DNA of 64,000 nucleotides from Natrinema saccharevitans (GTDB lineage Archaea > Halobacteriota > Halobacteria > Halobacteriales > Natrialbaceae), in contig NZ_LWLN01000001.1 of assembly GCF_001953745.1 (NCBI RefSeq), forward strand, positions 3,409,759 to 3,473,758, written 5' to 3'. A program made the position numbers and the translations under genes. Each line of letters opens with the position of its first letter. Position 1 is the first letter of the stretch. This document shows, one piece after another, positions 16,828-42,580 of the stretch. Under the pieces are notes generated by a model, which was not told the origin of the DNA, did not search any database, and worked only from the letters and a program-made list of their open reading frames with translations.

Positions 16828-17946
16828 ATGACGCTCTTACCGGTCGACACCGACGTCCTGGAAGACGTCTGTCGGGATATCGCCCAGGACAACTACGGAT
16901 TTATCTACGTCTCCGATCAGAAAGGCGAGATCAAGGCAGCCTACGAGAGCGCCGACGTCGGCCTCGTCAACGCGCGGTCGCTGTCCTCGAGCGATCTCCA
17001 CGAGGCGCTGACCGAACTGGCCGCCGCCGAGTTCGTCGGTCTCGAGCAGTTGCGCGACGGCGTCTTCTACGTCGATCCGTTCGGCGTCAAGGGGAACATG
17101 AACATCACGCGGGAGTTGACCAACCTGTTCGGGCAGCGGCTCGTCGTCACGGGGGAGACGCTGCGCTCGCGGTTCTCGCTCGCCATCGACGATCTGGACT
17201 TCTTCGCCGACGAACTCGCGGATCGCAACTATCTCCGACGGATCACCGCGGGCAAGCGCGACTACTACACGATCGGCCCGCAGCTCAAAGAACACGCCGA
17301 CGACGTCGGCCTCGACGCCCGGCTCGAGCGCGAGGCCGCGAACGGGAAGATCGCCCACAGCGATCTCGAGAGCGTCATCGACGTCGACGCGACCGCGGAC
17401 GTGATCCGCTATCTCGACCGGGAGGGGTACATCGTCGACCTCGACGGGGAGTATCTGGTCGAGGAGGCGATCGACGAGTACGCCCAGTATCTCGCCGCGC
17501 AGATCGAAGACGCGATCGAGGCGGAGTTCGAGGACTCGAGCTACGTCCTCCGGACCGGCGAGTTCGAGCAGGTCGTCCAGAACGAGATCGACAGCCGGTT
17601 CGACGTCCTCTCGACGGCCCGTAGCGTCCGCGGGGAGATCCTCGAGGGGGCCCGCGAGACGCTGGTCGATCGGCTCGGGCTCGAGGAGGGCCGGGAAATG
17701 GTCGAAGCGGTCGACCCGTTCGAGGACGTGGTCGCGGACCACGCCCGACGCATCCTCGCGGACGTAAAGGCCGAGCAGGACCAGTTACCGGGCACGCTTC
17801 CGGAGTGGGTCGAACTGGCCGAGGACCACGTCGCGGAGCTGCAGGTCAGCAACGCGACCGCCGTCAACGAGTACGTCCGCGACGCGGTCCGGGAGCGCTA
17901 CAGGGGGCTCGTCAACGAGGAGGAGTTCGGCGGAATGGCAGCGTAA
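16828..17946 (+). CDS. Tandem winged-helix protein, first gene of the ESCRT-like operon
   Basis: 372 residues, not a named family. It reads as at least three consecutive winged-helix-like units (about 1-75, 85-150 and 155-215; note SSSDLHEALTELAAAEFVGL, RSRFSLAIDDLDFFADELAD and HSDLESVIDVDATADVIRYL), each ending in a short strand pair. The C-terminal half is helical (about 220-365). It has no signal peptide or membrane segment. Tandem winged helices are the building blocks of ESCRT-II subunits and of UFL1-type proteins; that is a fold-level analogy, not a homology I can prove. It lies 25 bases upstream of the coiled-coil gene and leads a five-gene operon that ends with the AAA+ ATPase and beta-propeller genes. 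Confidence 0.82.
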   Translation: MTLLPVDTDVLEDVCRDIAQDNYGFIYVSDQKGEIKAAYESADVGLVNARSLSSSDLHEALTELAAAEFVGLEQLRDGVFYVDPFGVKGNMNITRELTNLFGQRLVVTGETLRSRFSLAIDDLDFFADELADRNYLRRITAGKRDYYTIGPQLKEHADDVGLDARLEREAANGKIAHSDLESVIDVDATADVIRYLDREGYIVDLDGEYLVEEAIDEYAQYLAAQIEDAIEAEFEDSSYVLRTGEFEQVVQNEIDSRFDVLSTARSVRGEILEGARETLVDRLGLEEGREMVEAVDPFEDVVADHARRILADVKAEQDQLPGTLPEWVELAEDHVAELQVSNATAVNEYVRDAVRERYRGLVNEEEFGGMAA

Positions 17947-17971
17947 GACAACGGGAGAGGAACTCAACACT

Positions 17972-19024
17972 ATGTCTCAAAAGTACGAATTCGAACGCAT
18001 CGAAAGCGACGGACGGGAGTACGTGATCGCCGATCCGGTCGATCAGACGGCCGATCCGGTTCGACTCGAGGCCCGCTGGATCGAGGGCGACGACGTCGAC
18101 GGGGAGTGGGAGCGAGCGATCCGAGCGATCATCAAGACAGATCTGCTGGGGTCGATGGAACTGAAGGAGGGCAACGGTCGGATCGACCGCAGACAGGCGA
18201 TCGAGACGCTGGCCGCGGCCAGCGACGACGAGGGCGATATCGTCACCAGCGAACAGCAGGCCGAGGCGTTGCTCGAGTTCTTCGCCGAGGAGGATATCGT
18301 CGACCTGCAGGGTGGACGGGTCGTGATGCTTCGCAATCCGAGCGACGAACCCGACGAGATAAACGGGCGGATGATCCTCAACTGGGCGGCCGCGATCGAC
18401 GCCTGCGTCGAGAAGATCACCGAGACCATCGAGCGGGTCGAGAGCGCCAAGGAGAAACTCGAGAACCGGATGGCCGACATCGACCAGGAGTCGGGGACGA
18501 TCGACGAACACCTAGCGGAGACCGCCCAGGAACTCAGGAGCCTCGGCGACGGCCCCGGCGTCCCGCAGGACCCGTCGGAACTCCCGCAGGACGATCGCGA
18601 ACGCTTCCAGCAGCTCAAACGGAAGCTGATCTATCACAAGAAGATGAAAGAAGCCGATCAGGAGAACCTGGCGGAGAAAGTCGAGAGCGGGGCCGACCGG
18701 CTCGCCGACAACATCGAGATGCTCGAGTCGGCCAAGACGACGCTCGCGAACAAGCGCGAGCAGGTCCGCACGCAGGCGCTGAAAAAGCAGACGTTCCCCG
18801 ACGAGGCGATGAATATCGTCGACAACATGGGAGAGTTGACGACTCAGCTCGCCGGTGTCGGCGGTATCGAGGAGGAGGTCGAGAACACGGCCGACCACGA
18901 GCTGGACGCGATGGTCGACGACGTCCTCGGCGATATCGAGAGCGTCGGGGAGACCGCCCAACAGACCGCCGGCGAGGAGGTCGCGGAGACGGACCGGGAA
19001 ACGAGCGAACTCGAGATGTCGTAG
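17972..19024 (+). CDS. Winged-helix plus coiled-coil protein, candidate ESCRT-III-like filament subunit
   Basis: 350 residues. A winged-helix-like N-terminal domain (about 45-122: WERAIRAIIKTDLLGSMEL to GGRVVMLRNP) is followed by long charged helices (about 133-190 and 205-290, for example VEKITETIERVESAKEKLEN and YHKKMKEADQENLAEKVESG). A short proline-containing break and an acidic tail follow, with helix HELDAMVDDVLGDIESV at about 309-325. In eukaryotic CHMP7 a winged-helix module also precedes an ESCRT-III helical core, and ESCRT-III subunits end in short acidic helices that bind Vps4. The basic first helix and acidic C terminus fit that plan. It sits two genes upstream of a Vps4-like AAA+ ATPase. 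The ESCRT-III assignment is inference. It is cytoplasmic by sequence. Confidence 0.85.
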   Translation: MSQKYEFERIESDGREYVIADPVDQTADPVRLEARWIEGDDVDGEWERAIRAIIKTDLLGSMELKEGNGRIDRRQAIETLAAASDDEGDIVTSEQQAEALLEFFAEEDIVDLQGGRVVMLRNPSDEPDEINGRMILNWAAAIDACVEKITETIERVESAKEKLENRMADIDQESGTIDEHLAETAQELRSLGDGPGVPQDPSELPQDDRERFQQLKRKLIYHKKMKEADQENLAEKVESGADRLADNIEMLESAKTTLANKREQVRTQALKKQTFPDEAMNIVDNMGELTTQLAGVGGIEEEVENTADHELDAMVDDVLGDIESVGETAQQTAGEEVAETDRETSELEMS

Positions 19025-19025
19025 G

Positions 19026-19733
19026 ATGCGCGGGGACTCGCTGCTGGGCGGCGTTCGTCGGGTCGACGAGCAGGGTTCGCGGCTGCTGTCCCTGCGGACG
19101 TTTTCGGGTCCCGAGCCCGCGAGACGGGTCGAGATCGCGATGGACGCCCTCCTCGATCTCGCCGAACTGCTGCGTGCCGGGGCCCCGTTTCCGCCGCGAC
19201 TCGAGCCCGACGCGGCGGCGCGGACCGCCGACGCGCGTCCCGACGGCGGCTCCCGGGTTGGCGGAACGAACGGGGACGAAGACTGCGAGGACGCCCTCGT
19301 CCGGCGGGTCCTCGCGGCCGGGTACGAGCGCGGGGCGACGACCGTCGAGGGGTTCGACGACGCGACTGCCGACCGAATCGCGGCCGCGAATCGGCTCGAG
19401 ACCGTCGACTCGCGGGTGATCGTCCCCCTGTCCCGGACCGCGCCGCACGCGTTCAACTGGCGGCCGGTCATCGAGGCGCTGCTCGACCGCCTCGAGGGGG
19501 TCCGGTCGGCCTTCGGGCGGGTCCGGGACCGAGTGCGGGCCGCGGGGATCGACCGGCCGTTCGCGGCCGGCTGCGAGGCGATCGTCGCGATGCTCGAGTC
19601 GCTCTCGCTGGTGGTAGAGCGGGCGGACGCCGGGGGTCGGTACGTCCGCGATCGGACCGACCAGCGACAGGGCGAGTTACTGTCGACGATCGCGGACGCG
19701 ACGACGCAGCTACGGGGTGACGAGAATGCTTAA
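19026..19733 (+). CDS. Small helical protein between the ESCRT-III-like and AAA+ genes
   Basis: 235 residues from ATG 19026, one base after the upstream stop. The frame is open further upstream, but that part lies inside the previous gene. The N-terminal half (about 1-100) is helical with a gap of low-complexity residues at about 60-85. The C-terminal half (about 145-230) looks like a helical bundle (RPVIEALLDRLEGVRSAFGR and CEAIVAMLESLSLVVERADA). No motif or named domain is recognised. Its stop overlaps the start of the AAA+ gene by eight bases, so it is translationally coupled to it. An adaptor or cofactor role is inferred from position alone. Confidence 0.8.
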   Translation: MRGDSLLGGVRRVDEQGSRLLSLRTFSGPEPARRVEIAMDALLDLAELLRAGAPFPPRLEPDAAARTADARPDGGSRVGGTNGDEDCEDALVRRVLAAGYERGATTVEGFDDATADRIAAANRLETVDSRVIVPLSRTAPHAFNWRPVIEALLDRLEGVRSAFGRVRDRVRAAGIDRPFAAGCEAIVAMLESLSLVVERADAGGRYVRDRTDQRQGELLSTIADATTQLRGDENA

Positions 19734-21435
19734 CCTGACGCCAATACTGAAACGAGACCAGCCGACGTCACGCATCGAGATCGGAGCCAAAAAGGTCGGC
19801 CCGAACACCGACACCGTCGAGATCCGTCACAACGACCGGCGCGCGTTCTTCTACGTCGAGCCGGTCGACGACTCGATCGTCGACGGGATCGGAAACAAGG
19901 TCCGGATGCACCGGAACGTCAAGACGGTGTTCGGCGGGATCGATCGGGGCACGGACTTCCTGGTCGATCCCGACGCGACGAAACGCGACGTCGTCGAGTG
20001 TTCGTCCGCGAAGATCCACACCAGCGAAATCGCGCCCGACGACCTCGAGCCGTTCCTCCGGGAGAACGACTACCTCCTCCATCGGATGGAGGAGGTCGTC
20101 CCGAAAGGCGACGAGCTGGCGACCTTCGAGGTCGCTGCGATGGAGCCGACGGATTACGCCACGCTACGGGTCACGCCCGACACGGACCTCGAGTTCATCG
20201 ACGCCGGCGAACTCCGGGAGCTGCGCGCGACCCGGACCCCGGCGGCCCGGGGCGGTCCCGGACCCGGCGGCCCCGGACAGGAGGGAGACGGCGACGAGGA
20301 GGTGCAGGTCTCGCTCGAGCCCAAGAAGCCGACCGTCAGCTTCGAGGAAGACGTCGCCGGGTTACCGGAGGTCAAACGCACGGCGGAGAACCTGCTCGCC
20401 CTGTTCGATCCCGACGTCCGAGACGAGGTCGTCGAGCGCTACGGCGACGAGTTCGCCTCGCGGGGCAACAGCATGCTGCTGTACGGCCCGCCGGGCTGTG
20501 GGAAGACGCTCATCTCCGAGGCGATCGCCTACGAGGCCAAGTACAACTCGAACATCGAGGACAGCTACGGCGAGGTGAAGTTCCTGGAGATCAAGGGCAG
20601 CGACGTCCTCTCGAAGTACTCCGGCGAGTCCGAGAAACGCGTCGAAGCCATCTTCGAGAAGGCCCACGGGATCGCCCAGGAGGGCTTTGCGGTCCTGTTT
20701 TTCGACGAGGTCGACACCCTCATTCCGGATCGGGGTGACGACTCCTTGCAGCGCCACGAGCGGTCGCTGACCAACGCCTTCCTCCAGGAGATGAACGAGA
20801 TCGAGGACAACCTGCTCGTGATCGGGGCGACGAACATGCCGTTTACCATCGATCCGGCCGCGACCCGCCGGTTTCCGATCCAGCAGTTCATCCCGCAGCC
20901 CGACGAGACGGTGATGGCCGAGGTCTGGCGGAAACACCTCTCCGAGATGGCCGGGACCGACGGGATCGAGTACGAGCGACTCGGGGCCCGCTCGGAGGGG
21001 TACACGCCGGCCGAGATCGCCGACCGCGTCCTCGGGAGCGAACTCCAGCGGGAACTCGTCGAGAGCGTCCACCTTCCCGACCGCGAGCCGATCGAACCGG
21101 ACACCGACTACTTCCTCGAGCGCCTCGCCGAGACCGAGCCCAAGACGATCCGCCAGTACGTCGCGAGCGTCCGGACCCAGATCGACGACCTCGAGGGGTA
21201 TCCCGAACTCAAACGCTACGTCGAGGACCAGGCCGAGCGCCTGGACATGCGGCTGGGATCGGAGCCCGCGTCGCTGGGCGAGTTGCTCGGCGGCGGTAGT
21301 ACTGAGGCGAAGCCGGCAGGTGACGGCGGTGACGCCGACGACGCGGAGCCGGCGTCGTCCGGGTCGGTGCCGATAGACGTCTCGGACCCGGACGAGGCTG
21401 CCGACGGCGAACGTGGGGGTGACGACGATGAGTGA
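19726..21435 (+). CDS. AAA+ ATPase with Vps4-like motor domain
   Basis: 569 residues from ATG 19726, preferred over GTG 19717. The N-terminal region (about 1-170) is strand-rich and not a MIT domain. A glycine/proline linker (about 170-195) leads into one AAA+ module: Walker A GPPGCGKT at 254-261, Walker B LFFDEVDTL with Asp327 and Glu328, sensor 1 Asn370 in GATNMPF, and paired arginines ATRRF at 381-382 as arginine fingers. The stretch after sensor 1 (PFTIDPAATRRFPIQQFIP) closely follows the pattern of Vps4/katanin-class ATPases. A helical lid and a long acidic C-terminal tail follow. It probably forms a hexamer that threads or disassembles partner filaments, with the coiled-coil protein two genes upstream the obvious candidate. 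It is a single-ring protein, unlike Cdc48/VAT. Confidence 0.92.
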   Translation: MLNLTPILKRDQPTSRIEIGAKKVGPNTDTVEIRHNDRRAFFYVEPVDDSIVDGIGNKVRMHRNVKTVFGGIDRGTDFLVDPDATKRDVVECSSAKIHTSEIAPDDLEPFLRENDYLLHRMEEVVPKGDELATFEVAAMEPTDYATLRVTPDTDLEFIDAGELRELRATRTPAARGGPGPGGPGQEGDGDEEVQVSLEPKKPTVSFEEDVAGLPEVKRTAENLLALFDPDVRDEVVERYGDEFASRGNSMLLYGPPGCGKTLISEAIAYEAKYNSNIEDSYGEVKFLEIKGSDVLSKYSGESEKRVEAIFEKAHGIAQEGFAVLFFDEVDTLIPDRGDDSLQRHERSLTNAFLQEMNEIEDNLLVIGATNMPFTIDPAATRRFPIQQFIPQPDETVMAEVWRKHLSEMAGTDGIEYERLGARSEGYTPAEIADRVLGSELQRELVESVHLPDREPIEPDTDYFLERLAETEPKTIRQYVASVRTQIDDLEGYPELKRYVEDQAERLDMRLGSEPASLGELLGGGSTEAKPAGDGGDADDAEPASSGSVPIDVSDPDEAADGERGGDDDE

Positions 21436-24427
21436 CGGCTACCGACAGGTCGGCTCCTTCGAGAGCGAGCGCGTCGACGCCGTCGCCGTCGGCGACGGGG
21501 CCATCGCCGTCGGGACCGGCGAGCGGATCGTCCTCGTCACGGGAAGCGATCGCGTCGAGCTCGATCACGGCGAGCGGGTCGTCGACCTCGCGGTAGCCGA
21601 TCGCGTCCTCGTCCTCTCGGCGGACGCGCTGACGGTCTACTCGCGGAACGGCGATCGGATCCGACGACAGCCGGTCGCGGACGCCCACGCGATCGCGACC
21701 GTTCCCGGCGAGGGAATCGTCGGCGTCCTCGGACCCGATCGGCTCCGAGCCGTCGACGTCGCGACCGGCCGCGAGCGGTTCGACGTCGAGCGCACGCGGC
21801 CGGGCGGCCCGGCCGACGACGGCCTGCTCGGGACGCCCGCCGGCTTCGTGATCGCGACGTGGTCGTTCCTGACCCGGATCGACCCGGACGGCGAGATCGG
21901 CTTCGATCGCAACCTCGAGGCGGTCGTGCGGAGCCTGGGGCGATGTGACGACGCTGTCGTCGCGGCCTTACAGAACGATCGGCTCGTCTCGGCGGCCCTC
22001 GAGACCGGTGCGGAGCGCTGGCAGACCGCGCTTTCGGCCGACCACGTCGCGCCGGTCGGGGAGTCGTCGGTGCTGGTGACCACGACCGACGGCATCCGCG
22101 CGGTCGATCCGGACGGGGAGACGGCGTCGGTGCCGGGGCTCTCGACGGGCGACGGCTACGCGACGGCCGACGGCTCGCTCGTCTGTTCGATCCGGGACGG
22201 GACCGTCTCGACGTACGTCCACAACCGCGACCGGCTCCGTCTGACGGTCGCGACCGACGCCGTCGGCGTCGGCGGGACGATCGACGTCGAAGCGACCAAC
22301 GCGACCGACCGGGAGCGACGCGTCGACCTCGCCGCCGCCGTCGAAGGCGCGACGCTGTCCCCGAGCGAGCGGACGGTGGCGCTCGAGGCGGGGGAGACGA
22401 CGATCGTCGACTTCCCGGTCGAGGCGGTCCGCTCGGAGGGCGAACGGACGGTCGAACTCGCCGTGGACGGGTCGGTCGTCGAGCGGTCCGCCGTCGAACT
22501 CGACGACGCCGCGAGCGGCGGGATCGCCGTCGAGGCCGACCTCGCGGTGACGGCCGTCGACCACGGCGTCGCCGAACTCGAGGTCGCCGTCGAGAACGTC
22601 GGCGGCGTTGCCCTCGAGGGGGTCCGGCTGCTCGAGACCGACGCCGGGACCGAGTCACTCGAGCCCGGCGGAACGTGGACGGGGACGGTCACGCGTCCTT
22701 ACGAGCCCGACCGGCGGGTCTCGGTCGGGCTCGAGGTCGCCCGCGGGGATCGGCGGCGGGAGTACGCGCCGACGTGTACGCTGCCGCCGACGCCGACCGT
22801 CGACGTCGAGGCCGACGGCGACGCGGTCCGCGCGACCGTCGACACGGCCGGTTCGGTGACGGTCGTCGACCGGCTCGTGATCGAACTCCCCGGCGCGGGC
22901 CGGGTCCGGACCGAGGTGACGATCGAGCGCGACGAACTGCTGCTCGTCGTCCCGCAGTTCGACGAGGGGACCGCCCGGATCGGCTTCGAGTCGCTCGACG
23001 TCGACGAGCGACTCCGGCTCTCCGGCGGACCGGCCTCCCTCGCCAGCGCGTCGGGGATCGGCGGCTCCCGGTCGGCCGATCGGGACCGCGATCGCGACGG
23101 GCCGACGCGGAACGACCGCGACGCCGCGTCGAGTTCCCCGCCTACGAGCGAGTCGTCGGGACGAGAATCGACCGCTCCCCGAAGCGAGGACGGGCGGCAG
23201 AACTCGACGGGGCCCACCGCCGAGACCGGTCTCGACGACGAGTCCGACGCGGCGTCCCCGACCGCTGCGCCGGACGCGACGTCCGCGGCCACCGGGGCGG
23301 ACGAGGCGTCGACGGCTGACGAGTCGGGTTCGGACTCGAGAGCGCGCGACGGGGCGGCCCACGCCGACGACGCTGCGGGCGGCGACGATCGGGCCGGGGA
23401 GTCCGGGCTGGTCGCGACGCGGCGGCTCGAGGGCGACTCCGCGCCGGTCGGGCACGCCGTTCGCGACCGGATCGAACTCGCCAACGAGGGCGATTCGACG
23501 GTCGACGTCGCCGTGGAGATCGGCGAGTCGACGGTCGACGCCGGACGGCTCGCAGCCGGTGAGCGGACGACGCTCGAGCGGTCGGTCGCGATTCTCTCGG
23601 GCACGGAAACGACCGTCTCGCCGGCCGCGATCAGTGCCGACGGAACGGTCAGCGAGCGGCTCTCGGACCGGTCGATCGCCGACGCCGGCGGCGGCGTCGC
23701 CGTTCGCGCGACGGTCGATCCGGCCGACGGGAGCGTCGTCGCCGAACTGGTAAACCGCGAGGACCGGCCCCGTCGGGTCGACGCCCTCGAGATCGATGGG
23801 CGGTCGATCCCTGTCGAGGCGCGGCTCGCGGCCGGCGAACGGACGACCGCGACCGGCGGGCTCGACGGCTGGACCGGGACGAACGCGGCCACACTCGAGG
23901 GGACGGTTGCGATCGCGGACGAGGACGGAACCGCCAGGCGGGTCGATATCGTCGCCGCGGTCGCGTCGGGGGCCGGTGTCGACGCCGCCGGCGACGACGG
24001 CGACCCGTTCCGGATCGCGATCGGGTCGGGGACGCAGGTCGCCGGCGAGTACGGCACCGTCGTTCTGGTCTTCGAGAACGAGGGCGAGCGGCCGCTGGCG
24101 GACGTGGCGGTGTCGGCGAACGGCGAACCGATCAACGACCTGTTCTACTCCGAAGCGCGCCGCGAGCGCCTCGGGCCCGGCGACCGGATCGAACACTTCG
24201 TCGACATCGAACCGGGCGTGTCCGAGCCGTCGTTCGAGGCGACGGTCCGGTACGCGGTCGACGGTGCCGACCGCGAGGCCGCCGTTCGCGCGGCCGGTCC
24301 GGCGACCGACGACGAGGCCGCGTGGACCGACGACCACCGCGAGCGCTGGTCGGTCGAGCGTGTCGAAACCGAGTCCGCATCGCCGGACGCGCCGTCGTCG
24401 CTGTCGACGCCGTTCCGCCGCGCGTAA
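21428..24427 (+). CDS. Beta-propeller protein with repeated Ig/CARDB-like domains
   Basis: 999 residues from ATG 21428, which overlaps the AAA+ stop by eight bases. The N-terminal ~275 residues are short repeated strand units (AVAVGDGAIAVGTGERIVLV, LAVADRVLVLSADALTVYS) that look like a propeller of WD40/PQQ type. They are followed by Ig/arrestin-like beta-sandwich units (about 280-520), an acidic Ser/Asp/Ala-rich linker (about 540-660), and two or three further Ig/CARDB-like units (about 665-970). There is no signal peptide and no membrane segment, so unlike most CARDB proteins it should be cytoplasmic. Propeller and arrestin-like folds are common in eukaryotic trafficking coats; here the role is unknown, but the coupling to the AAA+ gene suggests a cargo or scaffold part. 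Confidence 0.88.
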   Translation: MSDGYRQVGSFESERVDAVAVGDGAIAVGTGERIVLVTGSDRVELDHGERVVDLAVADRVLVLSADALTVYSRNGDRIRRQPVADAHAIATVPGEGIVGVLGPDRLRAVDVATGRERFDVERTRPGGPADDGLLGTPAGFVIATWSFLTRIDPDGEIGFDRNLEAVVRSLGRCDDAVVAALQNDRLVSAALETGAERWQTALSADHVAPVGESSVLVTTTDGIRAVDPDGETASVPGLSTGDGYATADGSLVCSIRDGTVSTYVHNRDRLRLTVATDAVGVGGTIDVEATNATDRERRVDLAAAVEGATLSPSERTVALEAGETTIVDFPVEAVRSEGERTVELAVDGSVVERSAVELDDAASGGIAVEADLAVTAVDHGVAELEVAVENVGGVALEGVRLLETDAGTESLEPGGTWTGTVTRPYEPDRRVSVGLEVARGDRRREYAPTCTLPPTPTVDVEADGDAVRATVDTAGSVTVVDRLVIELPGAGRVRTEVTIERDELLLVVPQFDEGTARIGFESLDVDERLRLSGGPASLASASGIGGSRSADRDRDRDGPTRNDRDAASSSPPTSESSGRESTAPRSEDGRQNSTGPTAETGLDDESDAASPTAAPDATSAATGADEASTADESGSDSRARDGAAHADDAAGGDDRAGESGLVATRRLEGDSAPVGHAVRDRIELANEGDSTVDVAVEIGESTVDAGRLAAGERTTLERSVAILSGTETTVSPAAISADGTVSERLSDRSIADAGGGVAVRATVDPADGSVVAELVNREDRPRRVDALEIDGRSIPVEARLAAGERTTATGGLDGWTGTNAATLEGTVAIADEDGTARRVDIVAAVASGAGVDAAGDDGDPFRIAIGSGTQVAGEYGTVVLVFENEGERPLADVAVSANGEPINDLFYSEARRERLGPGDRIEHFVDIEPGVSEPSFEATVRYAVDGADREAAVRAAGPATDDEAAWTDDHRERWSVERVETESASPDAPSSLSTPFRRA

Positions 24428-27762: not shown

Positions 27763-27764
27763 CT

Positions 27765-31930: not shown

Positions 31931-31933
31931 AGG

Positions 31934-35037: not shown

Positions 35038-35300
35038 CGCAACCGCCCCTCGAACTCCCGGTTTTTGTACCAGTAGGTCGCACCGCTGGCGATCGTGGCC
35101 CCGAGTCCGGCCCCGAGGAGGAAGCCGCCGACAGCGATCGGAAGCGACTGCTCTGCGAGCGCGATCGCGGCGGCGGCCTCGGACGTCGCCTCGGTCGCCG
35201 TGTCCACGCCGATGCCGGCCGCCCCGCTCGTCCCCGCGAGGAGTCCGGTCGCGGCGACGAGACAGAGGAGACACAGCACCGTCCGTCGGCGACCGATCAT
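35034..35300 (-). CDS. Small membrane protein (signal peptide plus one membrane helix)
   Basis: 88 residues from ATG 35300, which overlaps the stop of the tubulin-like gene by four bases. The N terminus is a signal peptide (VLCLLCLVAATGLLAGTSGA). A short helical segment and one glycine-rich membrane helix follow (LPIAVGGFLLGAGLGATIAS), then a basic tail NREFEGRLR in the cytoplasm. Its stop overlaps the next gene by four bases. Such a small coupled membrane protein next to a tubulin-like GTPase could act as a membrane tether; this is inference. Confidence 0.8.
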   Translation of the reverse strand: MIGRRRTVLCLLCLVAATGLLAGTSGAAGIGVDTATEATSEAAAAIALAEQSLPIAVGGFLLGAGLGATIASGATYWYKNREFEGRLR

Positions 35301-36694
35301 GCGAGCAACTCCTCCGTCTCGTCCTCGTAGGCCTCGGCCGCCGCCTCGATGTCCGCGAGCCGATCGATGTCCTCGCGGCGGTAAGTCAACAGCGTCGTCA
35401 CCGACGCGAGGTTCCGGTCGCTCATCGCGACGCCGATGTTGACCTCGTTGAGACCACAACTGCGCTCGAGATACTCCTTGACCGTCCCGATCTCGACGCT
35501 GTTGCCGCCGGCCTCGAGGTTCGATTTCGGGGCCCTGATCAGCGAGATCGCCTTCTGGGCGTCCTCTACGTCGGCCTTCGCGAGCGTCTGCTTGGCCGCC
35601 GAGAGCCGAGACAGCGCCGCGCTGTCGATGTCGCGTTTGCCGACGAACGGGAGCAAATAGCCCGGTAGCGACTTGGTCATCGTCACCGAGCGCCCGATCG
35701 CGGCGTAGCCCGGCGTCGACTCCTCGCCGGCGACGCCGAACGACAGCGACGTCACGATGTCCCGCACGTCGATGTCGGGGGTGTCGATCCCGTCGACCGC
35801 GCTGGGATCGACCCCGCTCAACACCGGTCCGGCGACCATGTCGTAGACCGACGCGGCGACGTAGTCGTTGTACTCGCCGAACTCCCCGCCCGCCGAGTCG
35901 AGATAGGAGATCCGCTGGTTGTCGACCAGCACGATCCCGTCGACTTCCTCCTCGAGACGATCGAGACCGTACCGGGCGTTCCAGGCTTGCCGACCGGGAC
36001 TGGGGCTGTCTCCGTCGGCCGCCCCATCCTCGTCGGCCGATCCGCGCGTGTTCGGCAACACCGCGATCGCGACGACCTTGGCCCGGCCGTCGGTAAACGC
36101 CTTGATCTCGCGAGCGAGATGGGGACCGATCCCGCAGCCGGTCCCGCCCCCGAGCCCGAGACACAGGAACGCGAACTGGACCGTTCCCGTCCCCGTCGGA
36201 TCGGTCTCCTGGGCGGAGTCGGGCTCCGGTGGTGCCCCCTCGGTCTCCGTGCCCCCGTCTTCGAGGGCTTCCTCGTCCTCGAGCGACTCGTCGAACGCGT
36301 CCTCGGCCTGATCGTCGAACGCGTCTTCGAACGAGCCCGCGGATCCGGCCTCGAACTTCTCGCCGAGGATCGTCTGTATCTGCGGGGCGTGTTCGGCCAT
36401 CACCTCGTCGGCGTCGACGGGGTTTCGACCGAACCCGCCGGTCACCATCTCCTCGAACCCCGCCTCGGTGCCCTGGACGAGTCCGTGCTGTTCCGCGATC
36501 CCGTACTGATCTTCGGGCGGCACGTTCGAGAGGTTCTGCAGGTCCCGCATCGTCGAATTGAACACCAGCGGCCGACCGACCGTCGAGATGTCGGCCGAGT
36601 CGAACAACCCAAGCAGCGAATCGTCGGTGTAATCGAACACCGAATCGACGATGGCTCCCCCCGCTTGTCCGGCCCCAACGAACAGGTACGTCAT
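35297..36694 (-). CDS. FtsZ/tubulin-superfamily GTPase, type 2, with acidic insertion
   Basis: 465 residues, first gene of the eight-gene minus-strand operon. The T1 loop is GAGQAGG at 7-13 and the tubulin signature is GGGTGCG at 182-188. Between them, at about 115-165, is an unusually acidic, low-complexity insertion (EDAFDESLEDEEALEDGG and more) that should loop out from the core. The later segment EFGEYNDYVAASVYDMVAG probably corresponds to helix H7 and the catalytic loop. The C-terminal half (SAAKQTLAKADVEDAQKAIS, EYLERSCGLNEVNIGVAMSD) fits the second tubulin domain. The pattern differs from canonical FtsZ and CetZ. Confidence 0.9.
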   Translation of the reverse strand: MTYLFVGAGQAGGAIVDSVFDYTDDSLLGLFDSADISTVGRPLVFNSTMRDLQNLSNVPPEDQYGIAEQHGLVQGTEAGFEEMVTGGFGRNPVDADEVMAEHAPQIQTILGEKFEAGSAGSFEDAFDDQAEDAFDESLEDEEALEDGGTETEGAPPEPDSAQETDPTGTGTVQFAFLCLGLGGGTGCGIGPHLAREIKAFTDGRAKVVAIAVLPNTRGSADEDGAADGDSPSPGRQAWNARYGLDRLEEEVDGIVLVDNQRISYLDSAGGEFGEYNDYVAASVYDMVAGPVLSGVDPSAVDGIDTPDIDVRDIVTSLSFGVAGEESTPGYAAIGRSVTMTKSLPGYLLPFVGKRDIDSAALSRLSAAKQTLAKADVEDAQKAISLIRAPKSNLEAGGNSVEIGTVKEYLERSCGLNEVNIGVAMSDRNLASVTTLLTYRREDIDRLADIEAAAEAYEDETEELLA

Positions 36695-36705
36695 CTAACT
36701 ATCAA

Positions 36706-36993: not shown

Positions 36994-39003
36994 CTACCCG
37001 CGGAGCCGACGGAGCATGACGCTGTACTCGTTTCGCTCGTAGAGGGCTTCGACGTGGTCCAGCACCTGATCGGCAGCCCCACAGAGGCCGGCCGCCCGCA
37101 TCGGGTCCTCGCTTTCGGCGCGCTGGGCCTCGTCCCGGAGATCGTCGGCCAGCGAGAGGAAGTGCCGCGGAATGGTGTGGTTGTGATCGGCCCTGACCTC
37201 GACGTATTCGCGTTCGATGGCGTCGATCCGCTCTTCGATCTCGGCGACCGACTGCCCGAGGTTCGCCCCGCTGTCACCGCCCAGCGAGCGGGACAGTCGC
37301 GGCAACAGCGTCCGATCGTAGAAGGTCGCCTCCTGATACATTGCGTACAGCTGGACGTCGGTGATACCGTCGCGATCGAGCATCGCCTCGAGTTCCCGCA
37401 CCCGATCCGCGAGGTGCCGGTAGACGTCGCCGTCCTTGCGCCCGAGTTCGTCGTCGATCGCGTCGAGCCGTCGCCGCACGTCGCGTTCGCCGATGTCGGC
37501 GACGACGGCCCGCAGGTCCGCGTAGGCGTCCAGCGAGTCGACCGTCGAGCGCAACACCGACTCGACGCCGTCGGGTTCGGACTCGCTCAGCGTCTCGAGC
37601 AGTTCGCGGGACTGTGACGACTCCGGTCGCACGCTCCGCTCGAGGTCCGAAGCAGCCGACGCGACCGACGTCTCGGTCGTTCGCGTCGCGTCCGGGTCCT
37701 CGAGCGCGACCGAACCGCTTTCGAGGGCGTCCGCGAGTTCCGCGGTTCGGTCGGCGACGTCGCCCGTCCGGAAGGAGACCGCGCCGCTTCGGTCGGCCTC
37801 GCGACAGACCGTCTCGGCCGCGGTCCGTATCCGCTCGTACTCCCGTTCGGACCGTTCCAACTCGGCTTCCGTCTCCGAGAGTGCCGCCTCCGTTTCCGCG
37901 AGTTCGGATTCGACCGCCGACGATTCACCGCCCTCGAGGACGCGATCGAACACCGGTTCGAGACCGGCGGCGATCGCCCCCTCTCGCACGGACAACGTAC
38001 GTTTCGCCGACTGGAGCTGTGCGTCCGCCGTCGGATCGTCGATTCCCTCGACGGCGTCGGCGACGGCTCCCGCTTGCTCGAGCCGGTCGACCGCGTCCTC
38101 GAGGGCGTCCTCGAGTCGCGCCTCGTCCGGGTCCGGGTCCGAGAGAACCCGACACAGTTCGTCGGCGATCGGGTCGGTCGGTCGCGTTCGCGAGGTGACG
38201 TCGTCCGCGACCGTCGTCACCGGATGCGCCGCCGTCTGAGCCGGCTCGTTGCCGTCGTCTCGAGCGGGCGCGGGTTCGCCGCCGCTCTGCTCGGTGACCG
38301 CTGACGGGCCGGACTCCCGATCCGCCGCCGGCTCCGTGCGATCCGTCGCCCTCTGTGTCCCCCGTCGGTTCGGGTCGGTTCCGGGGCCACGGCTCGAACC
38401 GGGATTTTTGATCTCCCGAACCCGCTGGCGGACCTCGGAGACGACCTCGTCGACGGTGTCCGTCGCGATCGAACTGATTCTGGTCGATTCCCCGCCGGCC
38501 GTCTGGATCTCGAGTTCGGTGAACGTCCCGTCCTGATGGGAGCGGACGCCGGTCACCTGATCGTAATAGATCTCCTCGTTGGTGCCGCCGCCGGACCCCG
38601 ACCGCGCTTCCATGTCATATCTCGCACCTTTGTTCAGGTTGATCGACGTATCGGTGATGACGATAGTCGTGTTGTGGTACGTATCGGATGGACTGACAAG
38701 CGGCGGCGAATTCCCGGAATTGTACGTCAGATTGTATAAATCCGCGCTGTCGACCTCGATGCCCCGTCTCGCGTTCCGCTCGGATTCGCCGATGAACTTC
38801 TGGATGAGCGGTTCGTACTTGTTGTTGATTTCCCTGACGCCCCAGTACCAGACGACGATGCCTCCGAGCAGTCCGAGTCCGATGAACGGCCCGATCGCTT
38901 CCATGGCCGCTCCGACGATCGTAAACACGACCGTCACGCCGATGATCACGCGCCACGGCGACCACCCCACCCTCCACCGGAGATTGTTGATGTCCGCTGC
39001 CAT
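36994..39003 (-). CDS. Membrane protein with PH-like domain and long coiled coil
   Basis: 669 residues from ATG 39003 (MAADINNLRW); earlier in-frame starts would add about 40 residues of doubtful coding character. Two N-terminal membrane helices (about 17-55: VIIGVTVVFTIVGAAMEAIG, LGLLGGIVVWYWGV) are followed by a beta-rich domain at about 85-185 that reads like a bacterial-type PH/GRAM domain (TTIVITDTSINLNKGARYDM, EIYYDQVTGVRSHQDGTFTE, ending in helix TVDEVVSEVRQRV). A disordered linker (about 190-280), helical/coiled-coil parts (about 285-600) and a C-terminal helical module (about 605-669) complete it. The last module resembles the end of 27765-30701. It stands between two tubulin-like genes. 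Confidence 0.87.
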   Translation of the reverse strand: MAADINNLRWRVGWSPWRVIIGVTVVFTIVGAAMEAIGPFIGLGLLGGIVVWYWGVREINNKYEPLIQKFIGESERNARRGIEVDSADLYNLTYNSGNSPPLVSPSDTYHNTTIVITDTSINLNKGARYDMEARSGSGGGTNEEIYYDQVTGVRSHQDGTFTELEIQTAGGESTRISSIATDTVDEVVSEVRQRVREIKNPGSSRGPGTDPNRRGTQRATDRTEPAADRESGPSAVTEQSGGEPAPARDDGNEPAQTAAHPVTTVADDVTSRTRPTDPIADELCRVLSDPDPDEARLEDALEDAVDRLEQAGAVADAVEGIDDPTADAQLQSAKRTLSVREGAIAAGLEPVFDRVLEGGESSAVESELAETEAALSETEAELERSEREYERIRTAAETVCREADRSGAVSFRTGDVADRTAELADALESGSVALEDPDATRTTETSVASAASDLERSVRPESSQSRELLETLSESEPDGVESVLRSTVDSLDAYADLRAVVADIGERDVRRRLDAIDDELGRKDGDVYRHLADRVRELEAMLDRDGITDVQLYAMYQEATFYDRTLLPRLSRSLGGDSGANLGQSVAEIEERIDAIEREYVEVRADHNHTIPRHFLSLADDLRDEAQRAESEDPMRAAGLCGAADQVLDHVEALYERNEYSVMLRRLRG

Positions 39004-39290: not shown

Positions 39291-40886
39291 TTATGCCATG
39301 TTCTCGCGGCCGAGACAGGAAAACAGCGCCTCGACGGCGTCCCACTCCTCGCGGACGTTCTCGGCCTGTTCGCTGCTGCCCTCCTGTTTGAGCCGCTGGG
39401 CCCGCTCGTACATGTCCGACAGCGACGGCATCTCTGGGTTCCACAGCGTCCCCCAGAGGTGGACGTCGTCGAGGTCGGGCGTGACGAGCTGTTTGACGTG
39501 GACGTCGACGGTCTCGATCCCCGCGGTGTCGCCCGCGTCGAGAAACTCCTCGCCGGAGACGATTTCAGTCACCGTCCCGTCGGCGACGAACTCCGACACC
39601 TCGTCCATCTTCTCGGCGGGGCCGTACAGGAGGAAGGTCCCGCCCCAGGCCGTCGTCGGGTCGAACTCGGCCAGCTTGTTCTGGAACAGCGCGTTCCGGA
39701 CGAGGATCTCGAGCTTCGAGCGATCGAACGAGTTCGCGCGCGATCGGCCCAGAATCGGCGCGAGGATCACCGCCGGCGTGAACGACGCGTCCGGGTTCAG
39801 CCGGTACTTGTCCTCGACCGGCCGGAAGCTGTCGGCCGGATCGAACACGTCGCCCATGATCGACATCGTCGCGTCCCGGTCGAGGAACTGCGGCACCGAC
39901 GACATCGTAAACGCCTCGAGGAAGGCCACGAGCGGCCGGTTGATATCCGTGTACTGGGGCGGGTTGAACTCCTCGAGCCGATCGATCCGCGGGCGGATGT
40001 CCGCCTGAACGGCCTCGAGGCGATTGTTGTCGAACGGGATAATTGCGTCGACCGCTCGCGAGGTGCGCGCGAGCCCGACGACGCCGTTTACCTTCGCGCG
40101 GCCGCCGTACTTCGAGTACTCGGTCCCCTCGGAGGGGATGACGACGCTGCTAAAGAGCGGCTTCGGAACGATCGTGTCGTCTCCGAGGACGTCGTTTCGG
40201 AGGCGATCGGCGACGACCGGCGTCGCGCCACAGCCGGTGCCTTTCGTGACGCTGTGGATGAACATCACCGCCTGCGAGTCCTGAATCCGATCGGTCCGCA
40301 TGTCCCAGCGCTCCCGGAACGGATCGGCACCGTCCTCGAAGTCGGCTTCCATCAGTTCCTTGCCGATGTCCCACCGGTAGCCGGCGCCCGCGTAGTCGTG
40401 GCGGCCGAACCCGATGATGCAGTTGGGCAGCAGGTCGTTGCGGCTGTACCCCTTCTCCTCCTGGGCGTAGTAGGTCTGCTCGAGTTCGCTGACGTTCGTG
40501 TTCAGGGGGCCGTAACCGGCGAGTCCGCCCTCCCAGATCCGGGCGCGACGTTCGTTGTTCTCGGCCAGCGTCTCGCGGCGTAACAGCACCGCGTCGAGGA
40601 TGTTGTTCCCCGCCCCGCCGACGCCAATGAGAAACCACTTTTTGCCGTAGGAACTGTCGAGCAGGTCTTCGCTCGGCGTCTCGGTCGGTCCCGGATCCGG
40701 TCGCGTCTCGCCGGTGGTCGCGTCCCCCTCGTCGGCCTCCTCGGCGAACACTTCCTCGCACAGTTCGGGATACACCTGTTCGACCGATTCCGGTTCGTCG
40801 CCGTGTGCGGCCCGGACGTGGTCGACGAGGGTCGACTCCGTCCACTCCCCCTCCCGTGCCATACAGATCTTACAGAGGTTCGTCAT
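39291..40886 (-). CDS. FtsZ/tubulin-superfamily GTPase, type 3, with N-terminal C2H2 zinc finger
   Basis: 531 residues. It begins with a C2H2-type zinc finger: Cys5, Cys8, His23 and His28 (CKIC, then DHVRAAH). An acidic disordered linker (about 30-78) leads to a tubulin-type GTPase: T1 loop GVGGAGNN at 88-95 and signature TKGTGCGAT at 204-212, where the first glycine pair of the usual GGGTG is replaced by Thr-Lys. DNNRL (about 265) is probably the sugar/ribose-contacting region before the second domain. The zinc finger suggests binding to nucleic acid or a protein partner, which is unusual for a tubulin relative. Its own promoter lies just upstream. Confidence 0.88.
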   Translation of the reverse strand: MTNLCKICMAREGEWTESTLVDHVRAAHGDEPESVEQVYPELCEEVFAEEADEGDATTGETRPDPGPTETPSEDLLDSSYGKKWFLIGVGGAGNNILDAVLLRRETLAENNERRARIWEGGLAGYGPLNTNVSELEQTYYAQEEKGYSRNDLLPNCIIGFGRHDYAGAGYRWDIGKELMEADFEDGADPFRERWDMRTDRIQDSQAVMFIHSVTKGTGCGATPVVADRLRNDVLGDDTIVPKPLFSSVVIPSEGTEYSKYGGRAKVNGVVGLARTSRAVDAIIPFDNNRLEAVQADIRPRIDRLEEFNPPQYTDINRPLVAFLEAFTMSSVPQFLDRDATMSIMGDVFDPADSFRPVEDKYRLNPDASFTPAVILAPILGRSRANSFDRSKLEILVRNALFQNKLAEFDPTTAWGGTFLLYGPAEKMDEVSEFVADGTVTEIVSGEEFLDAGDTAGIETVDVHVKQLVTPDLDDVHLWGTLWNPEMPSLSDMYERAQRLKQEGSSEQAENVREEWDAVEALFSCLGRENMA

Positions 40887-40888
40887 TC

Positions 40889-40900
40889 TGGCTACTATCG
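40889..40900 (-). promoter_or_regulatory. Repeated 12-base element before the type-3 tubulin-like gene
   Basis: On the minus strand the element reads CGATAGTAGCCA, 3 bases before ATG 40886. The identical block occurs at 39182-39193 upstream of the PH-domain membrane gene. It lies downstream of the TATA-like box, a usual place for an archaeal repressor site. Confidence 0.4.
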
Positions 40901-40917
40901 TATCCGTACGTCGGAAC

Positions 40918-40925
40918 TATCTAAA
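40918..40925 (-). promoter_or_regulatory. TATA-like box of the type-3 tubulin-like gene
   Basis: Minus strand TTTAGATA, 32 bases upstream of ATG 40886. Transcription would start within about ten bases of the start codon. Confidence 0.45.
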
Positions 40926-41104
40926 GGATTACGTGTGAGTCATCGCCGGTGACATGCCTTCGCCCTGTCGTTTCCCGCTTTCGTGTCTCATTGGTAATGG
41001 AGATGGGAAATTTATGCTCGAGTGGTCCGTAACGCGGGTCCTCGGACGGCGACCGTCGGGCGACCGGCATCGATGGCGCGGCGGCGGCCACCGGCGGGGT
41101 CGGT

Positions 41105-42580
41105 TCAGTCGCCGTGGCGCTCGACGAACCGTTCTTGCAGTGCGTCCAGTCCGTCCCGCGGCGTCGTCCGACCGGCGAACTCGATCTCGAGGAAGCCCGG
41201 CGGTGCGCCCTCCTGTAAATCTACGCCCTGGACGAGATCCGTCTGCCGGCGACAGAACGCGGCCAGTTCCTCGAGGACCGCCGCTCGAGCCACCCCGTCC
41301 GGGAGTCGCTCGGTCTGACACTGGACCGTCGCCCCGTCGGGACTTCCGTCCAGTTCCCGGAGGACGAACAGGATCTCGTCCGCCACCGCTTCGGGTGCGA
41401 CGGCGGATCGGCTCTCCGTGACCGCCGTCGACCCGTCGTCCGGTTCGCCGACCGCCGTCGCGTCGGCCGGCTCCCCGACGCCGTCCGTCGGCGACGGACG
41501 CTCGCCGGTGGGACCCCGATCCGCGACGACGAACGCGTCGCCGTCGATCGTCGCGTCGACGTCGTACTGTCGCTCGACGATCGGCTCGAGGTCGGTCATC
41601 AGCGCCGTCGAGACGCCGGCCGGAATCGCGACCCGCCCGCTCCCGTGTTCGATCGTCCCGACCAGCCCGCCGAGGAAGTCGACGGTGACCAGCAGTTCGT
41701 CGGCGGCCTCGTCGGCGTCCCGAAGCGCCCGCCGGGCGTCGTCGAACGAACAGCGATACAGCTGCCGGGTCGCGTCGGAAATGCGTCGCTCGATCTCGCT
41801 GACCCCCACCACGTCGTCGTGGCGGCCCTCGAGGACGAACTCCGCGACGCGATCGGCCAGCGCACCCTCGAGGCGGTCGACCAGCTCGCGGACGTCCGAC
41901 AGCGTCGCCTCGATCTCGCGTCGCCGGTCGACGATCGCTTCCTCGCGGTCGCGAACGTGGCGACGGACCGCCTCGCGGTGGTCGTCGACCGCCGCGGCGG
42001 CCATGGCCGCCTCGCGGATCGACCCGTCCTCGAGCCGGTCCCGGACGGCCCGCTCGGCCGCGTCGACGTGGACCGTCTCCCCGGTCGGCGGCAGGGACAG
42101 CTCCCGATATCGGCTCGGGAGGTTCACGATCTCGTACGCCCGGCCGTCGGGTCCGGTGACCCCCACGTCGAGGCGTCCGTCAGCCAGCGCCTCCTCGAGG
42201 CCGCGACGAAGTTCGCGCTCGGCGCGGTCGAGTCCCTCTCGGTCGGCGACGCGGCCCTCGGCGACGAGTTCGCGCACCCGTTCGACCGCGTCGGGCGCGA
42301 TCGGAGCCAGCCGCTCGAGGGTCGCCTCGCCGATGCGGTCCTCGAAGGTCGCGCCGTCGGACTCCTCGCGAGCGGTCGTTTCTCGGCCGTCGCCTCCCGG
42401 TATGGGGCCCGCACCGTCGTCTCCCTCCGCCGTCTCGGTCCCGCGTCTGCGGCCGACCGCGATCCCCGCGACGAGTACCACCACTGCCCCCGCGATCGCG
42501 AGCGGAAGCGGATCGTCCGCCAGCGAGAGTACCGCGTCCGGTCGAGTCCCCCATTCCGCCACCCGCGACTCGAGCTGCAT
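41105..42580 (-). CDS. Membrane-anchored coiled-coil protein, probable member of the cluster
   Basis: 491 residues from ATG 42580 (MQLESRVAEW); the longer frame upstream overlaps the helicase gene's 3' end and is not used. There is one membrane helix near the N terminus (LPLAIAGAVVVLVAGIAVG, about 26-44), then an acidic linker (about 48-80). A helical/coiled-coil section (about 85-330) holds DRRREIEATLSDVRELVDRL. A C-terminal alpha/beta domain (about 410-491) includes EILFVLRELDGSPDGATVQC. The plan (N-terminal anchor, coiled coil, small terminal domain) is the same as at 31934-34021, and it is next to the type-3 tubulin-like gene in the same direction. No enzyme motif is seen. Confidence 0.82.
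   Translation of the reverse strand: MQLESRVAEWGTRPDAVLSLADDPLPLAIAGAVVVLVAGIAVGRRRGTETAEGDDGAGPIPGGDGRETTAREESDGATFEDRIGEATLERLAPIAPDAVERVRELVAEGRVADREGLDRAERELRRGLEEALADGRLDVGVTGPDGRAYEIVNLPSRYRELSLPPTGETVHVDAAERAVRDRLEDGSIREAAMAAAAVDDHREAVRRHVRDREEAIVDRRREIEATLSDVRELVDRLEGALADRVAEFVLEGRHDDVVGVSEIERRISDATRQLYRCSFDDARRALRDADEAADELLVTVDFLGGLVGTIEHGSGRVAIPAGVSTALMTDLEPIVERQYDVDATIDGDAFVVADRGPTGERPSPTDGVGEPADATAVGEPDDGSTAVTESRSAVAPEAVADEILFVLRELDGSPDGATVQCQTERLPDGVARAAVLEELAAFCRRQTDLVQGVDLQEGAPPGFLEIEFAGRTTPRDGLDALQERFVERHGD

What the first reader, a model, noticed from the sequence alone, without database searches (positions are those of the whole stretch)
16828..42580. ESCRT-like module next to three tubulin-like GTPases: candidate membrane-remodelling system
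Seen: a five-gene plus-strand operon (tandem winged-helix protein; winged-helix plus coiled-coil protein; small helical protein; Vps4-like AAA+; propeller/Ig protein) converges on a minus-strand block encoding three different FtsZ/tubulin-superfamily proteins and at least six membrane proteins. Known: eukaryotic and Asgard ESCRT machines combine winged-helix ESCRT-II, coiled-coil ESCRT-III and Vps4; tubulin/FtsZ proteins form GTP-driven filaments. Inference: the two blocks form one machine for membrane scission, vesicle formation, surface-protein sorting or cell shape. Divergent ESCRT-like loci in non-Asgard archaea and FtsZ-like families in predicted membrane-remodelling systems have, as I recall, been proposed, so parts may be described; whether this full combination has been is not something I can check.
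Basis: partly seen in the sequence, partly recalled or inferred. Interest (0 to 1): 0.95.

Follow-up and report, generated by a model that had tools for sequence, protein, structure and literature searches.

The report
Haloarchaeal ESCRT–tubulin membrane-remodelling island
A 26-kb gene block that is present or absent as one piece among related salt-loving archaea joins an ESCRT-like ATPase gene set to three unusual tubulin-like proteins and seven predicted membrane proteins, and is predicted to form one machine that shapes the cell membrane or sorts its proteins.

Summary
In detail: five plus-strand genes (16828-24427) converge on ten minus-strand genes (24534-42580) with three divergent tubulin-superfamily GTPases and seven predicted membrane proteins. 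The ESCRT half is not new: its order matches the 'Halo_adaptin' ESCRT system of Makarova et al. 2024, whose text also names one CetZ-like protein. Added here: the halves are one unit. Of 194 genomes of the class, all 20 with the ESCRT half carry all three tubulins and all 15 genes in the same order (three split exactly between the halves). Thirteen of 15 cluster-free relatives tested show a clean empty site. Both halves share a history that conflicts with the flanking Hel308 tree. Two genomes keep tubulins A and B without the ESCRT half or tubulin C; beside them lies an FtsZl1-type gene of another predicted membrane-remodelling system. ESCRT-III structure is unproven: models of both helical candidates gave no significant match, and the ATPase scores nearer CDC48 than CdvC, below both cut-offs. 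Best reading: a trans-envelope membrane-remodelling or surface-protein-sorting machine; its function is inferred. New variant of a known kind.

The parts
16828..17946 (+). gene a: 372-aa protein, first gene of the ESCRT-like operon; corresponds by position to arCOG11740 (winged-helix protein) of the Halo_adaptin system
   Evidence: Ortholog in 20 of 194 genomes; no Pfam hit over cut-off; wH fold not modelled here
17972..19024 (+). gene b: 350-aa protein, N-terminal mixed alpha/beta region then long helices (132-174, 230-272); corresponds by position to arCOG11741 (wH + coiled coil)
   Evidence: AlphaFold2 model pLDDT 81.7, pTM 0.74; no PDB match at E <= 0.001
19026..19733 (+). gene c: 235-aa helical protein; corresponds by position to the 'PspA-like, derived ESCRT-III' of Makarova 2024
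   Evidence: Model pLDDT 82.9; no PDB match at E <= 0.001; 0 of 44 members hit Snf7 or PspA in Pfam at E <= 1
19726..21435 (+). gene d: AAA+ ATPase with one AAA domain, 569 aa, with intact Walker A (GPPGCGKT), Walker B (FFDE) and an RR pair
   Evidence: Pfam AAA 111.6 bits; motifs invariant in the 19 of 20 orthologs aligned; NCBIfam CDC48 133.1, CdvC 113.6 bits, both below cut-off
21428..24427 (+). gene e: 999-aa protein, by position the propeller/Ig 'adaptin-like' protein; also kept in the ESCRT-less variants
   Evidence: Found in 22 genomes after HMM iteration
24534..26777 (-). gene f: predicted signal segment, Ig-like ectodomain (ASH/HYDIN-like, below cut-off), C-terminal TM
   Evidence: hydropathy TM 5-23 and 706-724
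26770..27762 (-). gene g: predicted signal segment, C-terminal TM
   Evidence: Hydropathy
27765..30695 (-). gene h: multi-TM protein with CarboxypepD_reg-like domain (27.5 bits, cut-off 32.3)
30704..31930 (-). gene A (TubA): 408-aa tubulin-superfamily GTPase, T4 loop GGGTGNG, acid pair D241/D244
   Evidence: Pfam 38.5 bits; invariant in the 21 of 22 orthologs aligned; PDB best 4b46 E 6.8e-13
31934..34021 (-). gene i: two N-terminal TM segments, then a large region with weak Ig-like matches
34018..35037 (-). gene j: predicted signal segment plus two C-terminal TM segments
35297..36694 (-). gene B (TubB): 465-aa tubulin-superfamily GTPase, T4 loop GGGTGCG, acid pair D309/D312; closest of the three to the genome's CetZ-type protein by profile score
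   Evidence: Pfam 46.4 bits; invariant in 22 of 22; hhalign to L003 prob 98.7%
36994..39003 (-). gene k: predicted membrane protein with charged, likely coiled-coil cytosolic part
   Evidence: TM in window protein; none predicted in 10 of 20
39291..40886 (-). gene C (TubC): Cys2His2-like N-terminus (C5, C8, H23, H28 invariant), tubulin-superfamily GTPase, T4 remnant GTGCG, acid pair D349/D352
   Evidence: Pfam 46.4 bits; glycines G216, G218, G220 and the acid pair invariant in 19 rows (17 of 20 orthologs plus 2 distant relatives)
41105..42580 (-). gene l: N-terminal TM segment then a long cytosolic part
16009..16659 (+). left flank n: HAD-type phosphatase-like gene (name recalled from sequence, not scanned), outside the unit
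   Evidence: Lies beside Hel308 in 13 cluster-free genomes
42714..45071 (-). right flank m: Hel308-type helicase, outside the unit
   Evidence: Pfam DEAD, Sec63, Helicase_C

Best explanation
This is one 15-gene haloarchaeal unit, present or absent as a whole at one site among the window's close relatives, that likely encodes a membrane-remodelling machine in which three tubulin-like GTPases, predicted to be held to the membrane by seven predicted membrane proteins, work with an ESCRT-like AAA+ module. Proposed working (inferred): f, g, h and j, with predicted signal segments and ectodomains, would gather cargo or envelope contacts outside; the cytosolic parts of h, i, k and l would recruit GTP-driven filaments of A and B (perhaps a hetero-filament, as the two always occur together) and of C, which would mark and shape a membrane patch; e and the a-b-c proteins would link that patch to d, whose ATP-driven pulling would take the assembly apart and drive scission or release. 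Shown: the gene set, order, co-inheritance, conserved GTPase and AAA+ motifs, and the single insertion site. Not shown: filaments, contacts, membrane bending, scission and cargo.
For: Co-occurrence: a and d each in 20 of 194 genomes, the same 20; A and B each in the same 22; C strong (>500 bits) in the same 20 plus two weak relatives. Order and orientation of all 15 genes conserved in the 20. Three g26 genomes keep both halves although they lie apart. Empty site: n and m are neighbours, 13-710 bp apart, in 12 of 12 cluster-free genus-g1 genomes and in G052; the cluster sits between them in G000, G164, G085 and G167. Common history: G038, G141 and G037 join family f1, and G014 joins G161, in both the a+d tree and the A+B+C tree (8-row and 2-row clades, support 100), while Hel308 places G038 with its genus-mate G013 and family f4, and G037 with G036 and G161; G141 is weaker, as Hel308 makes its family f7 the sister of f1. 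AU tests reject f4 (without G014) as one clade for each half, and reject the f1+G038+G141+G037 grouping for Hel308. Partial Mantel a/d against A/B/C given Hel308: 0.70-0.86, 0 of 2000 permutations reach each. GTPase motifs: A, B and C keep T4 glycines and an invariant acid pair, aligned with the T7 acids of a CetZ-type protein for A and B. AAA+ motifs invariant. Prior description of the ESCRT half.
Confidence: 0.6

Rival explanations
1. An ESCRT-type vesicle-forming and protein-sorting system in which the tubulins are accessories, as proposed for Halo_adaptin by Makarova et al. 2024: Ig/propeller proteins bind cargo, an ESCRT-III-like protein and the ATPase bud vesicles.
For: Published reading of the same gene order; the window genome has five further tubulin-family genes elsewhere with 102-171 bits, so division is probably served by others.
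Against: Three tubulins are as strictly kept as the ATPase; A and B persist without the ESCRT genes in G042 and G048, so they are not mere accessories; no ESCRT-III fold confirmed.
Confidence: 0.25
2. Not scission: a cell-shape or surface-organelle machine in which the tubulins form a cytoskeleton attached to envelope proteins and the AAA+ protein is a Cdc48/VAT-like unfoldase that recycles them.
For: d nearest CDC48 (133.1 bits) rather than CdvC (113.6); nearest solved structures VCP/p97; A and B score best against the FtsZ-family chains 4b46 and 3zid (that these are CetZ types is recalled).
Against: Both CDC48 and CdvC cut-offs missed by far; gene order matches a system placed in the Vps4 tree by Makarova 2024.
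Confidence: 0.3
3. A horizontally moving accessory island for defence or competition between cells.
For: Patchy: 20 of 194 genomes, clean empty sites, apparent transfer between families.
Against: Of ten of the 15 cluster proteins scanned, PADLOC gives AAA+ matches for d (best IetA 94.6 bits) and weak matches for b (18 bits), and PHROGs gives matches for the same two only; no integrase or transposase domain over its cut-off in the 15 proteins.
Confidence: 0.1
4. Two unrelated operons that happen to converge.
For: The halves are on opposite strands and are split in three g26 genomes.
Against: 20 of 20 co-occurrence, shared empty site, shared history.
Confidence: 0.03

Closest known systems
Halo_adaptin ESCRT system (Makarova et al. 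2024, mBio, PMC10936438; abstract, sections 5 and 8 and passages read)
   Same: [quoted passage not shown] One carrier here, G014 (contig 3148033 bases, 47% GC), has the chromosome length and GC that I recall for Haloquadratum walsbyi C23; the paper names H. walsbyi.
   Different: The text names one CetZ-like protein and one membrane protein; here there are three tubulin families and seven predicted membrane proteins, shown to be one presence/absence unit. I could not read that paper's figure 3B or Table S2, so they may show more of these genes.
FtsZl1 membrane-remodelling systems (Makarova and Koonin 2010, PMC2875224; passages read)
   Same: Divergent FtsZ/tubulin protein encoded with membrane proteins, predicted to remodel membranes; an FtsZl1-type gene (Tubulin_2, PF13809) sits near the A/B module in G042 and G048, and a relative of it near k-C-l in G081.
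   Different: None of the window's three tubulins has a PF13809 hit; the window genome has no match to the FtsZl1 query at E <= 1e-15.
CetZ (4b45/4b46, recalled as CetZ; passages of Brown and Duggin 2023, PMC9856176, read)
   Same: T4 loop and T7 acid pair; best PDB match of A is 4b46.
   Different: Best matches to solved tubulin-superfamily chains are only 29.9-51.4 bits; weaker Pfam scores than the five other tubulin-family genes of the genome.
Thaumarchaeal artubulin beside Snf7 (Yutin and Koonin 2012, PMC3349469; passages read)
   Same: A tubulin gene next to an ESCRT gene.
   Different: One true tubulin and a Snf7 gene; different lineage and gene set.
Cdv / ESCRT-III-Vps4 of TACK archaea
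   Same: AAA+ ATPase encoded after a helical protein.
   Different: No Snf7 family match seen for c; CdvC equivalog cut-off 650 bits, d has 113.6.

Membership tests
Halo_adaptin ESCRT system | Order wH, wH-coiled coil, helical protein, AAA+ ATPase, Ig/propeller protein | tested here: met
   Order: against the text; that a carries wH domains and e a propeller was not confirmed by a fold
Halo_adaptin ESCRT system | ATPase has VAT_N-related N-terminus and no MIT domain | tested here: inconclusive
   No MIT hit in Pfam; profile of the N-terminal 180 aa, 12 of 20 orthologs, finds no PDB chain at E <= 1
Halo_adaptin ESCRT system | PspA-like ESCRT-III upstream of the ATPase | tested here: inconclusive
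Halo_adaptin ESCRT system | CetZ-related protein and membrane protein in the locus | tested here: met
   Three tubulin-superfamily proteins, seven predicted membrane proteins
ESCRT-III (Snf7/PspA) | Long alpha1-alpha2 hairpin core with family-level fold match | tested here: inconclusive
   b has helices 132-174 and 230-272, no significant match; c likewise
Vps4/CdvC | NCBIfam CdvC equivalog NF041006 cut-off 650 bits | tested here: not met
   113.6 bits
Vps4/CdvC | Placement in the Vps4 clade of a tree | not tested
CDC48 | TIGR01243 cut-off 802.65 bits, two AAA domains | tested here: not met
   133.1 bits, one AAA domain
Tubulin/FtsZ superfamily | PF00091 above cut-off 33 bits | tested here: met
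   A 38.5, B 46.4, C 46.4 bits
Tubulin/FtsZ superfamily | T4 GTP loop and T7 acid pair | tested here: met
   A and B aligned with the CetZ-type L003; for C the pair is invariant but its T7 place was not covered by the alignment
FtsZ (cell division) | TIGR00065 cut-off 295.2 bits | tested here: not met
   21.2, 23.9 and 31.1 bits
CetZ | CetZ family-specific residues and tree placement | not tested
   Only profile similarity was measured
FtsZl1 | PF13809 Tubulin_2 domain | tested here: not met
   No PF13809 hit at E <= 1 for A, B, C; a TubC relative, P0147, has 14.7 bits, below the cut-off of 27; window genome not among the 23 of 194 with a match

The most novel reading that the evidence does not exclude
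Halobacteria carry a mobile, dispensable membrane machine built on a core of tubulin filaments and envelope proteins into which different scission modules are plugged: an ESCRT-like AAA+ set with tubulin C in the full 15-gene form, or an FtsZl1-type filament protein with membrane GTPase-like proteins in the reduced form. Two systems predicted separately in 2010 and 2024 would then be alternative outfits of one tubulin-based machine, and the full form would be a prokaryotic case of ESCRT-like and tubulin machinery inherited as one unit.
Probability: 0.4. Interest if true: 0.85.

Novelty: new variant of a known kind. Interest (0 to 1): 0.62.

Why it matters
ESCRT and tubulin machines are usually studied apart, and in archaea their joint use rests on scattered neighbourhoods. 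A 26-kb unit that carries an ESCRT-like ATPase set with three tubulin families, is present or absent cleanly between close relatives, and seems to have crossed families as a block, gives matched with/without strains and a defined gene list for testing whether tubulin filaments and AAA+ disassembly act together on an archaeal membrane. It also suggests that genes named 'cell division protein FtsZ' in a number of haloarchaeal records (TubC) are misnamed.

Tried and rejected
Chance convergence of two operons: rejected.

Vps28-like or ESCRT-III fold for gene c, and ESCRT-III for gene b: sought by two AlphaFold2 models, two Foldseek searches and two VIA second looks, by PDB profile searches and by Pfam on members (44 of 44 for c; 20 of 60 for b). 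Nothing significant. No ESCRT-III chain is among the 50 VIA rows shown for b or for c; this does not exclude the fold.

Defence: PADLOC and PHROGs on 10 of 15 cluster proteins gave matches for d and weak ones for b only.

Spread outside the class: the TubA profile in 148 genomes of the phylum gave orthologs (>590 bits) only in three genomes of the window's order; three more distant genomes have hits of 59-60 bits, probably CetZ-like but not checked.

Promoters: upstream of a, B, C and l there are conserved TTTA-type boxes in close relatives (8 genomes looked at), but I saw no motif clearly shared between the two halves; inconclusive.

The first try at aligning with canonical FtsZ/CetZ read wrong frames and was discarded; one search replaced it and used two of the five canonical loci (L003, L005). 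One search failed in script and was replaced.

Rows dropped: G174 from the Hel308 comparison (its Hel308 match is in two pieces), leaving 19 of 20 carriers; in TubC alignment A3 17 of 20 orthologs plus 2 distant relatives; in A6 21 of 22 TubA; in A9 19 of 20 d; G014 left out of the f4 clade test. G062 and G182 were tested for the empty site and are uninformative (n is 12.6 kb from m, or absent). Genes c, g, j, k were not in the correlation table.

Papers: PMC10936438 abstract, sections 5 and 8 in full, and passages; PMC9856176, PMC2875224, PMC5898192, PMC3349469, PMC7617429 and PMC10927574 passages only; others only as search listings. Statements on prior art rest on searches; the library holds open-licence papers only, listings were capped, and supplements could not be read.

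Full report
What is there. The window lies in a haloarchaeal genome (G000, contig C1 3409759-3473758; archaeal rRNA operon at 54.9-60.0 kb). Five plus-strand genes a-e (16828-24427) converge on ten minus-strand genes f, g, h, A, i, j, B, k, C, l, listed from 24534 to 42580. Several neighbours overlap (c-d, d-e, f-g, i-j), as in operons; B, k, C and l are set apart by 218-299 bp. Pfam finds an AAA domain in d (111.6 bits) and tubulin GTPase domains over the cut-off in A, B and C (38.5, 46.4, 46.4; cut-off 33), and nothing over its cut-off in the other cluster proteins. Hydropathy predicts at least one TM segment in each of f-l in the window; f, g, h and j begin with a hydrophobic segment that could be a signal peptide. 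The genome has five further tubulin-family genes elsewhere with 102-171 bits, so the three here are extra and divergent.

One unit: co-occurrence. In 194 genomes of the class (65 genera, own genome included) gene a is found in 20 and gene d (E <= 1e-60, all over 500 bits) in the same 20. TubA orthologs (over 300 bits; the next match has 64 bits) are in 22, TubB in the same 22. TubC is strong (over 500 bits) in the same 20 as a and d, with two weak relatives in G081 and G031 (228 and 192 bits). So the ESCRT half implies all three tubulins in 20 of 20, over 12 genera; only G042 and G048 have A and B without it. After two rounds of HMM search all 15 genes are found in the same order and orientation in all 20: 16 contiguous (in G147 k is in two ORFs), G162 broken by contig ends inside gene c, and G017, G061 and G098 (one genus) split exactly between e and f, with the halves about 245 kb apart in G017, about 60 kb apart in G098 and on different contigs in G061. 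Still, each of these three keeps both halves.

One unit: the empty site. In the carriers G000, G164, G085 and G167 the cluster lies between a HAD-type gene (n) and Hel308 (m). In 12 of 12 cluster-free genomes of the window's genus in the sample, and in G052, n and m are neighbours with 13-710 bp between them. Two further cluster-free genomes tested, G062 and G182, are uninformative; the carrier G105 keeps m beside l but n lies about 13 kb from a. Around this site the whole 26-kb block is thus present or absent as one piece.

One unit: shared history. In 19 carriers with an intact Hel308, trees of a+d and of A+B+C both place G038 (family f4), G141 (f7) and G037 (f3) with family f1, and G014 (f4) with G161 (f3). 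Hel308 places G038 with its genus-mate G013 and other f4, and G037 with its genus-mate G036 and with G161; it puts G141 with G033, the two being sister to f1, so G141 is the weakest case. Holding eight f4 rows together (without G014) is rejected for a+d (p-AU 1.1e-64) and for A+B+C (7.6e-38); holding f1 with G038, G141 and G037 is rejected for Hel308 (2.5e-4) (quick trees, groups named after seeing the trees, so the p values are optimistic). Pairwise identities of a or d with A, B or C correlate at 0.87-0.94, while those of each of these five with Hel308 correlate at 0.72-0.79; after Hel308 is partialled out the former are 0.70-0.86, and 0 of 2000 label permutations reach each of them. The simplest reading is that the halves were transferred together. 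The core proteins a, d, A, B, C are 37-93% identical to the window's across carriers, while e, f, h and l change faster (20-73%).

Modules. In G042 and G048 the retained genes are e and f-g-h-A-i-j-B; a, b, c, d, k, C and l are not in the fetched regions, and a, d and C are absent from the whole genome at the thresholds used. Near them lies a 1157-aa FtsZl1-type protein (Tubulin_2, 36.5 and 35.7 bits, cut-off 27) with membrane proteins, some holding P-loop-like motifs (read from the sequence) but no Pfam match. FtsZl1-type genes are in 23 of 194 genomes, only one of which (G174) has the ESCRT half, on another contig. In G081 a k-C-l set with an e-like protein also stands near an FtsZl1-type gene; in G031 a C-l set stands with an h-like protein kinase and an unassigned tubulin-like ORF. 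With so few cases the reading that FtsZl1 replaces ESCRT is suggestive only.

Biochemistry that the sequence allows. TubA keeps GGGTGNG and D241/D244 in the 21 aligned orthologs, TubB GGGTGCG and D309/D312 in 22, TubC G216-T217-G218-x-G220 and D349/D352 in 19 rows. For A and B the acid pair aligns with the T7 acids of the genome's own CetZ-type protein (that T7 supplies catalytic acids is established knowledge for FtsZ and tubulin); for C the alignment stops before it. PDB profile searches put A nearest to 4b46 (51.4 bits), B to 3zid (46.5) and C to bacterial tubulin BtubA (29.9). TubC starts with an invariant C-x2-C and two invariant histidines. d keeps Walker A, Walker B and two arginines (R381, R382) in the 19 of 20 aligned. 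All four proteins are predicted active.

Mechanism. The steps are given in the best explanation; all steps beyond motifs, order and co-inheritance are inferred. I prefer a trans-envelope membrane-remodelling or sorting machine because four kinds of parts are kept together: proteins with predicted ectodomains, membrane-tethered proteins with large cytosolic parts, three nucleotide-driven polymer-type proteins and one AAA+ motor.

Prior art and novelty. The name Halo_adaptin occurs only in the 2024 paper and its preprint in the library searched, and the two arCOGs and the ATPase accession only there too. Searches for combinations of haloarchaea, ESCRT, CetZ, tubulin, Vps4, FtsZ-like and vesicles showed no other description of this locus in the rows listed (20 of 87, 20 of 27, 7 of 8, 4 of 5, 4 of 4). 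The paper's figure and supplements could not be read, so I do not claim that the three tubulins are unpublished as a list; the single-unit evidence and the link to FtsZl1 were not met in the passages read. I file it as a new variant of a known kind.

Noticed in passing
L079:1160-3481 (G017), similar in G061 and G098: Where the ESCRT half stands alone, two CetZ-like ORFs lie a few kb upstream of gene a, on the opposite strand.
   Followed up: partly
L059:2154-3524: A 456-aa ORF with tubulin-like glycine motifs but no Pfam hit, near the C and l relatives of G031.
   Followed up: partly
P0147 (protein): A TubC relative of unnamed source has a CarboxypepD_reg-like insert (26 bits, cut-off 32.3) between its zinc-finger-like N-terminus and GTPase domain, weakly like gene h: a possible hint of contact between C and h.
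   Followed up: partly
window 39291-40886: Many TubC relatives are named 'cell division protein FtsZ' in public records although the window's TubC scores far below the FtsZ cut-off.
   Followed up: yes
L051 (G038): Gene b of G038 is only 38% identical to the window while a and d are 71-73%: possible local replacement of b.
   Followed up: no
L118 and L119 (G174): Hel308 of G174 matches in two pieces.
   Followed up: no
window 16700-16827, 36695-36993, 40887-41104, 42581-42713: Conserved TTTA-type boxes upstream of a, B, C and l in close relatives suggest several promoters in the block.
   Followed up: partly
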